64,000 nt of DNA from assembly GCF_964355755.1 (NCBI RefSeq), contig NC_092674.1:2361001-2425000 (forward strand), in the 5' to 3' direction. This document shows, in pieces, positions 36,201-42,200 of this stretch. Numbering within the stretch: position 1 is the stretch's first letter; each line of letters opens with the position of its first letter. This DNA comes from Antedon mediterranea. Its lineage: Eukaryota > Echinodermata > Crinoidea > Comatulida > Antedonidae. The notes beneath the pieces were generated by a model, which saw only the letters and a program-made list of their open reading frames with translations, searched no databases and had not been told where the DNA came from. The position numbers and the translations under genes were made by a program.

Positions 36201-39200
36201 GACAAATGCCATTAGCACTATAATATTTTTATTGCAATGATTTTGATTATAACACCAACAGCCAAAATCTTTCTCAGTGAAGATACAGTCAGTTGTGTAT
36301 GATAGACAAAGCTTTTACTACAAATAAAAGCCATTAGCACTAAAATATGTATTAAGGCACAAAGCTAGGAATTTTTTATTTAATACTTTGATATTATACA
36401 GGAATCTTTATTGTTGAGGAAATATCAATAGCTAATCAAGTTTTTTTTAAATCTTGTTTAAAGGTAAACAATTTGTTATGTATTGCTTATTGCATTTTAC
36501 ATATTTATTTAGGTTCTTATTGAAAATGGTGAACTGATATCTGGTATCATCTGCAAGAAGACATTAGGGACATCTTCTGGTTCTCTTGTCCATGTCTCAT
36601 TCATGGAACGAGGCCACGAAGAATCCAAGCTATTGTATGGCTACATCCAGACAGTGGTCAACAACTGGCTTCTCTTAGAAGGTCACTCTATCGGTATCGG
36701 TGACTGTATTGCCGATTCTAAAACGTACGAGGATATTCAGAGTACGATTAAGAAAGCGAAACGTGATGTGATTGACGTTATTGAGAAAGCGCATAATGAT
36801 GATTTAGAACCAACTCCTGGTAATACACTACGACAGACCTTTGAAAATCAGGTGAGTAGTTTTACTATGTAAAGCTCTGTCCACACTATCAAACTAGTTG
36901 ACAAAAAAGGTGTGATATGCCCAAATATGGTAGTGATATACCTAAATATGGTAGTGATATGACATCATCATGTCCATATATGGGCAGATCACATGTTTTT
37001 GTCACATAAAGTTTGATAGTGTAGATAGAGCTTAGCGATGTTTTATGTTTTAAAGAACCATTTTAATACAACACATTGCAGTTAAAGATGTATTGTCCCT
37101 TTGACTAATTCCAAAAAAATAAAAAATAAAAGATTTTGAAAAAAGGTGGGTCATTTTGAAGTATCATAATAGTTATTAACTATCACCAAAAATTTTTCGG
37201 GAAAAAAAAAAATTAACTGAAATACATACGTTTTTTTGTTACAAAAATAACTTTGACTTCCAGTCAAAGTTTTCAATCAAAACATATCCCATAATGAAAC
37301 GCGCTTGTTTGGCTACTCTGTATGCATAATCATAAAACTTCCTCATGATCTGTGTGAAAATACCTTCTTAACCGTGACGAGTTGTAAACAATCCTAATTT
37401 AGCATATGCATAATGCGTACTCATGGTTTGAAATCTTTGTTTACTTTCGCTCGTGACGATTTTCCAGATGAAATGTAATCAAACTAATTTACCTGTTAAT
37501 TACGTAAACTTGTTGTTTTTGGCTCGAATTTTCGACTTAAAGTGAAAAACTTTAATATTACTTTGATATGGCCACTTTAAATTTAGAATATTTTGACCTT
37601 CATTTTTTTGTGTTTCAAGGGACAATACATCTTTAAACTATAATTAGTGAAATTTGTCTTTTTTTAGGTAAACAGAATTCTGAATGATGCTCGTGACAAG
37701 ACTGGTGGCTCTGCTCAGAAGAGCTTGTCAGAGTTCAACAACTTTAAGGTCATGGTGGTAGCTGGATCAAAGGGGTCAAAGATCAACATTTCTCAGGTAA
37801 CATTAACACTATATTTAACAATATCAACCTCTATGTTATTTATTGCTGTTTGTAATGGTAGTCTTATAGCGCCTAATAAAATGTTTCTAAGCGTTTTACA
37901 CACACAAATAATCCATAAAATATTCTAAGATAACAAAAAAAGCAAGAAAAGCAGAGGAACCATTTACACTGCTCAGTTCTCCAGCACTTTGAAGCTCCCA
38001 CTCACCGGAACAGTATTCACAGGAACTTGAGGGAAAAATGCATCTGTCTATCCTATCCTATTATTATCTGCTTTATTTATATTATTCTGACTACAATAAA
38101 ATGAGTTATTGCTAATGTATGGATGAATGTTTGTTGTTGTTTCTCTAGGTTATTGCTAATGTATGGATGAATGTTTGTTGTTGTTTCTCTAGGTTATTGC
38201 TAATGTATGGATGAATGTTTGTTGTTGTTTCTCTAGGTTATTGCTAATGTATGGATGAATGTTTGTTGTTGTTTCTCTAGGTTATTGCTAATGTATGGAT
38301 GAATGTTTGTTGTTGTTTCTCTAGGTTATTGCTAATGTATGGATGAATGTTTGTTGTTGTTTCTCTAGGTTATTGCTTATGTATGGATGAATGTTTGTTG
38401 TTGTTTCTCTAGGTTATTGCTTATGTATGGATGAATGTTTGTTGTTGTTTCTCTAGGTTATTGCTAATGTATGGATGCATGTTTGTTGTTGTTTCTCTAG
38501 GTTATTGCTAATGTATGGATGAATGTTTGTTGTTGTTTCTCTAGGTTATTGCTAATGTATGGATGAATGTTTGTTGTTGTTTCTCTAGGTTATTGCTAAT
38601 GTATGAATGAATGTTTGTTGTTGTTTCTCTAGGTTATTGCTAATGTATGGATGAATGTTTGTTGTTGTTTCTCTAGGTTATTGCTAATGTATGGATGAAT
38701 GTTTGTTGTTGTTTCTCTAGGTTATTGCTAATGTATGAATGAATGTTGTTTGTTGTTGTTTCTCTAGGTTATTGCTAATGTATGGATGAATGTTTGTTGT
38801 TATTTCTCTAGGTTATTGCTAATGTATGGATGAATGTTTGTTGTTGTTTCTCTAGGTTATTGCTAATGTATGGATGAATGTTTGTTGTTGTTTCTCTAGG
38901 TTATTGCTAATGTATGGATGAATGTTTGTTGTTGTTTCTCTAGGTTATTGCTAATGTATGGATGAATGTTTGTTGTTGTTTCTCTAGGTTATTGCTAATG
39001 TATGGATGAATGTTTGTTGTTGTTTCTCTAGGTTATTGCTTATCTATGGATGAATGTTTGTTGTTGTTTCTCTAGGTTATTGCTAATGTATGGATGAATG
39101 TTTGTTGTTGTTTCTCTAGGTTATTGCTAATGTATGGATGAATGTTTGTTGTTGTTTCTCTAGGTTATTGCTAATGTATGGATGAATGTTTGTTGTTGTT

Positions 39201-42200
39201 TCTCTAGGTTATTGCTTATGTATGGATGAATGTTTGTTGTTGTTTCTCTAGGTTATTGCTAATGTATGGATGAATGTTTGTTGTTGTTTCTCTAGGTTAT
39301 TGCTAATGTATGGATGAATGTTTGTTGTTGTTTCTCTAGGTTATTGCTAATGTATGAATGAATGTTTGTTGTTGTTTCTCTAGGTTATTGCTAATGTATG
39401 GATGAATGTTTGTTGTTGTTTCTCTAGGTTATTGCTAATGTATGGATGAATGTTTGTTGTTGTTTCTCTAGGTTATTGCTTATGTATGGATGAATGTTTG
39501 TTGTTGTTTCTCTAGGTTATTGCTTATGTATGGATGAATGTTTGTTGTTGTTTCTCTAGGTTATTGCTAATGTATGGATGAATGTTTGTTGTTGTTTCTC
39601 TAGGTTATTGCTAATGTATGGATGAATGTTTGTTGTTGTTTCTCTAGGTTATTGCTAATGTATGGATGAATGTTTGTTGTTGTTTCTCTAGGTTATTGCT
39701 AATGTATGGATGAATGTTTGTTGTTGTTTCTCTAGGTTATTGCTAATGTATGGATGAATGTTTGTTGTTGTTTCTCTAGGTTATTGCTAATGTATGGATG
39801 AATGTTTGTTGTTGTTTCTCTAGGTTATTGCTAATGTATGGATGAATGTTTGTTGTTGTTTCTCTAGGTTATTGCATGTGTAGGCCAACAGAATGTGGAA
39901 GGTAAACGAATTCCGTTTGGATTTCGACACAGAACACTACCTCATTTTATCAAAGATGATTACGGTCCCGAGAGTCGTGGATTTGTTGAAAACTCTTACC
40001 TGGCCGGTTTGACTCCCTCAGAAATGTTCTTTCACGCTATGGGAGGACGTGAGGGGTTGATTGATACAGCTGTCAAAACTGCTGAAACAGGTTAGTTGTA
40101 AAATGAGAATAATATATAATAAGTATATTTGACTTAGGCCTATAAGGCAGACAATATAATAAATATATTTGACTTGTAAGGCAGACAATATAATAAATAT
40201 GTTTAATTTCAGGTTATATTCAACGTAGGCTGATCAAAGCTATGGAGAGTGTGATGGTGAGGTACGATGGTACCGTACGTAACAGCAATGATTACTTGGT
40301 ACAGCTAAGGTACGGGGAAGATGGTTTGGACGGATGCTCAGTTGAATTCCAACAGCTGGCCACACTTAAACCTTCACACAAGGCCTTTGCTAAGGGCTAC
40401 AAATTTGACTATTCAAATGAAAAGTAAGTACAAGTAAAGCTTGTGTGCCCCTTCAGTTTGTTTGAGCATAGCAAATGTATTAAGCTCTGTCTACACTATC
40501 AACCTAGTTTGACAAAAAAGTGTGATCATCATATCCATATATGGGCACATCCCATTTTTTGTCGCATAAAGTTTGAGAGAGTTGTGTAGAGCTTAAGAGA
40601 CTATACTTTTTGATTGAACAATATTCAACATTATATATTTTTTTTTTGCCTACCAGGTTAATGCGTAAGAACTTAAAGGAAGATATTGTCCGTGACTTAC
40701 TTGGGAACAACCAAGTTCATTTGGAATTAGACAAAGAATGGGAACAACTTAGGGAGGACAGAGAGATCCTCAGGGAAGTGTTCCCATCTGGTGAAAGCAA
40801 GGTATGACGGTGTACAGTCCCTGCCTCAAGAGTGAATTTAATCACAGCCTTCACAAGATTAAGAGTGAATTTAATCACAGCCTTCACAAGATTAAGAGTG
40901 AATTTAATCACAGCCTTCACAAGATTAAGAGTGAATTTAATCACAGCCTTCACAAGATTAAGAGTGAATTTAATCACAGCCTTCACAAGATTAAGAGTGA
41001 ATTTAATCACAGCCTTCACAAGATACACACACAAGTTGCTCTACATAAATACACTTTAACAATTAATTTGCATTTTTTTATTTGATAACAATCTACCGTT
41101 TGTATATATTGTTCCCAGACTCTTTAAGAATGTTAAGCAAACATCTTAAACACCAAGCTACAAAAACTATTTAATAAATTACCCTTAAAGCTCTGCCTAC
41201 ACTATCACTTTATGTGACCAAAAAATGTGATATGCCCATATATGGACATGATGATGTCATACTACTACCATATTTAGGCACATCACAATTTTTTTGTCAA
41301 ACTAGTTTGATAGTGTAGACAAAGCTTAAGAATTCATTAACATCCCTTACTGCCTACACCCATCATATTCTTTATTTTTCCATGTATTAACAAATCTTGA
41401 TTATTCTCTCATAGGTTGCATTGCCATGCAATTTACAGCGTATGATCTGGAATGCAAAGAAAATCTTCCGCATAGATGCCAGGAAAACGTCAGATCTACA
41501 TCCTTTGACAGTTATTGAGGGTAGGTCCTGATAATAACAATTTTAAATTAATTGTATGCAGGCAGGACAGATAATAAATTGATACAACTTCGTATCTGAG
41601 GTAGATTATATTTTTGGTGGCCATACTTTACTATGTAAAAGTGAGTAATATCTTTTTATGTTATATTCGACTAAATAGGTATTCGTAAATTGTGCAAGAG
41701 TTTAGTGATTGTAAAAGGAGAGGACTCGATCAGCAAACAGGCACAACAGAACGCCACTATCCTATTCAACAGTCTTCTGCGATCTACCTTTAGCTCTCAG
41801 AAGGTCATGCAGGAACACCATCTGTCGTCGGAAGCATTTGATTGGCTGCTTGGTGAAATCGAGACCAGATTCAACCATGCTCATGTGAGTAACATTTATG
41901 GTTTTTTTTTCGATGTAGTGATATTTAGGTAAATATTGACAAATCCTTTCTGAATGCAATACCCCAATTGTTTACGTAATGTGTGAAATATTTCAATCAC
42001 AAGTTTTTTTACAATTCAAATCATGACATCAACAATATGGTCATTTCATTTTCACTAGGGGGTACCTGGTGAGATGTGTGGAGCTTTAGCTGCTCAGTCT
42101 CTCGGTGAACCAGCCACTCAGATGACCCTGAACACTTTCCATTATGCTGGTGTCTCGGCTAAAAACGTCACGCTTGGTGTGCCTCGTCTTAAAGAAATCA

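What the first reader, a model, noticed from the sequence alone, without database searches (positions are those of the whole stretch)
38105..39867. Forty tandem copies of a complete 3' splice site inside POLR2A intron 11
Seen directly: a 44-bp unit is repeated 40 times and runs up to the exon 12 junction. Every unit ends TTTCTCTAG and begins GTTATTGC, exactly the end of the intron and first eight bases of exon 12, and each includes CTAAT about 33 nt before AG. So the intron carries 40 equivalent acceptors. Because 44 is not a multiple of three and the next unit in the shifted frame meets TGA (and using the penultimate acceptor gives a TAG soon after the true junction), only the last acceptor yields RPB1; any upstream choice gives a premature stop. 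Inference: the array could titrate U2AF/U2, slow splicing, or tie RPB1 level to splicing fidelity through NMD. It could also be a neutral slippage product tolerated because the last site wins.
Basis: partly seen in the sequence, partly recalled or inferred. Interest (0 to 1): 0.9.

Follow-up and report, generated by a model that had tools for sequence, protein, structure and literature searches.

The report
Splice-site-spanning minisatellite in POLR2A intron 11
A 44-base stretch containing the end of an intron and the first eight bases of the next exon has been copied 40 times in a row in the gene for the largest RNA polymerase II subunit; it is real, but it belongs to a known class of repeat (amphioxus 'mirages'), recurs at other splice sites of the same genome, and most likely is a tolerated by-product of DNA repeat expansion.

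Summary
Window 38105-39867 is 40 tandem units (39 of 44 bp, one of 47) that run up to POLR2A exon 12 (39868). Each unit ends TTTCTCTAG and opens GTTATTGC, the last intron bases and first 8 exon bases. All 39 upstream acceptors lead to a stop within 6-33 codons. The functional reading is not supported. The kind is already described: tandem repeats spanning exon-intron boundaries, called 'mirages', in amphioxus Adh, troponin C, globin and PGBD5 genes, where papers report normal splicing. A small sample of the same genome (POLR2A, chaperonin and AAA-ATPase genes) holds five more, all on the donor side: three in one CCT7-like gene, one each in AFG2-like and AFG3L2-like genes. Six of 37 non-coding arrays span a junction; random placement of duplications predicts about 3-5. 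Best explanation: a 44-bp duplication over the acceptor, possibly seeded by an 8-bp direct repeat, expanded as a minisatellite and is tolerated because the exon-proximal copy is spliced. Recursive splicing is unlikely: the unit's GT scores below all 23 true donors. What stands out is the copy number: a strong acceptor repeated 40 times, a natural test of splice-site choice. No RNA evidence was available.

The parts
37668..37796 (+). POLR2A (RPB1) exon 11, ends ...ISQ at phase 0, donor CAG|GTAACATT
37797..39867 (+). POLR2A intron 11, 2071 nt, the longest of 23 introns; 308 nt without the array
37853..38063 (+). dispersed repeat inside intron 11, upstream of the array (at least 39 further copies at 77-89% identity in the assembly)
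   Evidence: query positions 254-464
38105..39867 (+). mirage array: 40 tandem units (39 x 44 bp, 1 x 47 bp), each = 8 nt copied from the start of exon 12 + 36 nt copied from the end of intron 11 (branch-like CTAAT/CTTAT, T-rich tract, TAG)
38721..38767 (+). the one 47-bp unit (3-nt insertion)
39824..39867 (+). last unit, carrying the functional acceptor; identical to the consensus unit; top score among the gene's 23 acceptors
39868..40090 (+). POLR2A exon 12; its first 8 nt (GTTATTGC, 39868-39875) are the exonic part of the repeat unit
34679..35532 (+). ordinary intronic minisatellite in intron 8 of the same gene (49 bp x 17.1), 122 nt from the acceptor, spans no junction
40828..41024 (+). 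ordinary intronic minisatellite in intron 14 (33 bp x 6.0, 100%), starts 27 nt past the donor, spans no junction

Best explanation
It is a mirage-type minisatellite: a tandem duplication that happened to cover the 3' splice site of POLR2A intron 11 (36 nt of intron and 8 nt of exon) and then grew to 40 copies by slippage or unequal exchange. The periodic run is 40 units plus 8 nt, which is what an 8-bp direct repeat (GTTATTGC in the intron and at the exon start) flanking one 36-nt segment would give as a seed. It is tolerated because the exon-proximal copy, the only one next to the real exon, its enhancers and its downstream donor, is the one that is spliced; upstream use gives early stops whose transcripts should be lost to NMD. 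Shown: structure, frames, gene identity, recurrence of such arrays at other junctions of this genome. Inferred: slippage as the growth process, neutrality, dominance of the last acceptor, NMD.
For: Array and frames. Gene identity and ungapped junction. Same genome, other boundary-spanning arrays, all on donors: CCT7-like gene, three arrays (90 bp x 3.7; 85 bp x 2.1; 87 bp x 2.2) in L067; AFG2/SPATA5-like gene, 43 bp x 2.0 at 100% (L081) and AFG3L2-like gene, 22 bp x 3 (L084). In POLR2A plus chaperonin genes 28 non-coding arrays, 4 spanning, 2.8 expected, P 0.30; with AAA genes 37 arrays, 6 spanning, 3.3 expected, or 4.9 if junctions are undercounted by a third (P 0.09 and 0.35). One copy of the CCT7 donor array has GT changed to TT, as expected of unused copies. 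Two plain minisatellites lie in other introns of the same gene. Published mirages: normal splicing and unstable copy number in amphioxus (PMC3087553; PMC3902484).
Against: No RNA data, so the dominance of the last acceptor is not shown. All 40 AGs and T-rich tracts are intact, which selection could also explain, although 6 to 10 mutation events would miss that core by chance 18 to 6% of the time. Leaving out arrays with a 21-bp period, most of them a dispersed family, the excess at junctions reaches P 0.045, so a mild bias towards junctions is not excluded.
Confidence: 0.85

Rival explanations
1. The array is a functional control element: upstream acceptors compete for U2AF/U2 and divert transcripts to NMD, setting RPB1 output or tying it to splicing fidelity.
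For: Every upstream acceptor gives an early stop; the unit's acceptor is the best-scoring of 23 in the gene and is kept in all 40 copies.
Against: The same structure occurs on donors of CCT7-like, AFG2-like and AFG3L2-like genes, so nothing ties it to RPB1. Early stops are the default for almost any intron inclusion. Published mirages are reported not to disturb splicing.
Confidence: 0.06
2. Recursive splicing: each unit is AG|GT, a 44-nt step removed one at a time or a ladder of ratchet points.
For: Each unit boundary reads TAG|GTTATT, formally a 3' splice site next to a 5' splice site.
Against: The GT context scores 0.8 bits, below all 23 real donors of the gene (1.4 to 10.8), and 35% of other GTs in these introns score as high or higher. 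The GTTATTGC is simply the exon start. 44 nt is far below the shortest intron of the gene (122 nt).
Confidence: 0.02
3. Assembly artefact: copy number inflated or array misplaced.
For: Repeats are the usual place for assembly error; no reads were available.
Against: The array is bounded on both sides by the correct intron and exon, carries 7 unit types in an irregular order, and occurs once in the assembly. Mirages in amphioxus were confirmed by re-sequencing. Exact copy number remains unverified.
Confidence: 0.05
4. Intron or exon birth in progress: copies of the boundary supply new splice sites that will become a new exon or intron, as proposed for globin mirages.
For: Published model for amphioxus globins (PMC3087553).
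Against: No unit here offers an open frame through to exon 12 and the donor-like sites are weak.
Confidence: 0.02

Closest known systems
Amphioxus 'mirage' minisatellites (Adh3, troponin C, globins BflGb6/BflGb9, PGBD5)
   Same: Tandem repeats whose unit spans an exon-intron boundary and so duplicates splice signals; either donor or acceptor side; only the copy next to the real exon is needed; units as short as 10-72 bp in Adh3 (PMC3087553, PMC3902484).
   Different: 40 copies here against 6 and 3 in the two BflGb6 haplotypes and a triplication in PGBD5; gene is POLR2A; the host does not look like amphioxus (11 large contigs seen; RPB1 exons 52-95% identical to human), though it was not identified.
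IFI6 (6-16, G1P3) 12-bp minisatellite of splice donors in human
   Same: A minisatellite at an exon edge that supplies many copies of a splice site (title of Nucleic Acids Res. 1995 23:1854, seen only as a reference in PMC2572611; about 26 copies from my own knowledge).
   Different: Donor side, 12-bp unit, and extra donors are used in transcripts according to that title; the paper itself was not held.
NAGNAG and other tandem acceptors
   Same: Neighbouring competing acceptors.
   Different: Two acceptors 2-12 nt apart sharing one branch point (PMC2878309), not 40 complete acceptor units 44 nt apart.
Intron gain by tandem duplication of AGGT segments
   Same: Tandem duplication that copies splice-like AG|GT sequence (PMC4974935).
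   Different: There a new intron arises inside an exon; here an existing intron end is multiplied.

Membership tests
mirage minisatellite | tandem repeat whose unit spans an exon-intron boundary | tested here: met
   36 nt intron + 8 nt exon in all 40 units; junction placed by gene model and ungapped RPB1 alignment
mirage minisatellite | copies carry the AG or GT splice signal | tested here: met
   40 of 40 units end TTTCTCTAG
mirage minisatellite | regular mRNA splicing is not disturbed | not testable with these tools
   no RNA data held
mirage minisatellite | length instability between haplotypes or within an individual | not testable with these tools
   one haplotype in the assembly; no second copy of the locus found
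mirage minisatellite | found at several unrelated genes of the same genome | tested here: met
   five further junctions in three other genes
recursive splice site | strong donor directly after the acceptor AG | tested here: not met
   TAG|GTTATT scores 0.8 bits, below all 23 real donors
NAGNAG tandem acceptor | acceptors within 12 nt of each other | tested here: not met
   AGs are 44 nt apart

The most novel reading that the evidence does not exclude
The 40-copy acceptor array is used: a sizeable fraction of POLR2A transcripts choose upstream copies and go to NMD, so array length tunes RPB1 output and varies between individuals.
Probability: 0.05. Interest if true: 0.8.

Novelty: new member of a known kind. 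Interest (0 to 1): 0.42.

Why it matters
It is a natural experiment on splice-site choice: 40 near-identical branch point, T-tract and AG cassettes in one intron of an essential, constantly expressed gene, with an error signal (early stop) for every wrong choice. Reads across exon 11 would show directly whether the spliceosome takes the first or the last of equivalent acceptors, and how exactly. It also suggests that boundary-spanning minisatellites, described in amphioxus, are frequent in a genome that does not look like amphioxus and arise about as often as random duplication predicts.

Tried and rejected
Recursive splicing: rejected on donor score. Unit as a dispersed element or known satellite: no copies elsewhere. 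Selection on unit sequence: 6-10 mutation events avoid the AG/T-tract/GT core, chance 0.18-0.06, so no conclusion; the recurrent A-to-T change at the branch-like CTAAT keeps YTNAY, also inconclusive. Second haplotype in the assembly: none found. Paper searches for acceptor-side equivalents outside amphioxus found none.

Full report
What is there. The sequence from 38105 to 39867 is 40 head-to-tail units, 39 of 44 bp and one of 47 bp (unit 15), 98% alike. All 40 begin GTTATTGC and end TTTCTCTAG; 29 are identical. The periodic run goes on 8 nt into exon 12, to 39875. Six units have CTTAT in place of CTAAT; both fit the metazoan branch-point consensus YTNAY.

The gene. A gene model by translated alignment gives 23 GT-AG introns (the guide protein was human RPB1 written from memory, and the junction in question was confirmed against PDB sequences). 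Intron 11 is the longest at 2071 nt; without the array it would be 308 nt, a usual length for this gene.

Consequences for reading. Splicing to any of the 39 upstream AGs gives a stop at codon 6 to 33, including the choices 132 nt upstream and its multiples that keep the frame. So only the last acceptor makes RPB1. This is shown from sequence; NMD of the others is inferred from general knowledge.

Splice-site quality. Scored against the other acceptors of the gene, this acceptor ranks first of 23; all 40 copies score within 0.2 bits of each other. The GT that opens each unit scores 0.8 bits against 1.4 to 10.8 for the 23 real donors, and 35% of other GTs in these introns do as well or better, so recursive splicing is unlikely.

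Known kind. A literature search led to amphioxus, where tandem repeats spanning exon-intron boundaries are called mirages. They occur in Adh3 (units 10-72 bp), in globin genes (one at the end of intron B12.2 and start of exon 2, 6 and 3 copies in two haplotypes), in troponin C and in PGBD5; the papers say that they do not disturb regular splicing and that copy number is unstable (PMC3087553; PMC3902484). The human IFI6 minisatellite of splice donors is a second, older parallel (by title only).

Same genome. Loci around chaperonin (PF00118) exons were scanned. A CCT7-like gene on C4 (L067, minus strand) has three boundary-spanning arrays, all covering donors: 90 bp x 3.7 after LGPRGMDKLIAQGG, 85 bp x 2.1 after INKEDN, and 87 bp x 2.2 after VRVDNVE. 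In the third copy of the first of these the donor GT has become TT. Eight pieces with AAA-ATPase genes gave two more: 43 bp x 2.0 at 100% after EIGVPNAQDRAD in an AFG2/SPATA5-like gene (L081), and 22 bp x 3 at the donor after ILYSTESDG in an AFG3L2-like gene (L084). Gene names here are by recalled resemblance.

How often by chance. In POLR2A and the chaperonin pieces, 28 non-coding arrays of period 20 or more were found, 4 spanning a junction; placing them at random gives 2.8 (P 0.30). With the AAA pieces it is 6 of 37 against 3.3; raising junction density by half for missed exons gives 4.9 (P 0.35); dropping arrays of 21-bp period gives P 0.045. The exon lists are incomplete and one AAA piece was chosen because it looked repetitive, so this shows rough agreement with random placement, not an exact test.

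Mechanism. Most likely a 44-bp tandem duplication across the acceptor, then growth by slippage or unequal exchange. The run is 40 units plus 8 nt (after removing the 3-nt insertion), as expected if GTTATTGC stood at both ends of a single 36-nt segment. Duplications across a splice site are visible to selection only if the wrong copy is used; copies next to the true exon keep the frame, so the array can grow. That the last acceptor is used is inferred from the gene's evident integrity and from the published cases, not shown here.

Verdict. Confirmed structure, known kind, unusual copy number, neutral origin most likely.

Noticed in passing
L067 (C4:29705175-29708369, minus strand): A CCT7-like gene with three donor-spanning tandem duplications in neighbouring exons, periods 85, 87 and 90 bp; the similar periods are unexplained.
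   Followed up: partly
L081 C5:30272327-30272414 and L084 C8:27231472-27231536: Donor-spanning duplications in AFG2/SPATA5-like (43 bp x 2, 100%) and AFG3L2-like (22 bp x 3) genes.
   Followed up: partly
L077 C7:26148261-26148643: Two consecutive, diverged copies of an AAA Walker-A exon (about 218 bp apart) in one gene, which look like mutually exclusive exons.
   Followed up: no
window, e.g. 3000-3104, 33986-34066, 36912-36961, 55885-55933, 59478-59518: A 21-bp unit close to CATATCACTACCATATTTGGG recurs as short arrays across the window and in several sampled loci; probably part of a dispersed element.
   Followed up: no
window 37853-38063: A dispersed repeat of about 210 bp inside intron 11, with at least 39 further copies at 77-89% identity.
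   Followed up: no
window 23295-23760: A 21-bp array of AATTCGAAATTTCGAATTATT, nearly palindromic, 21.9 copies.
   Followed up: no
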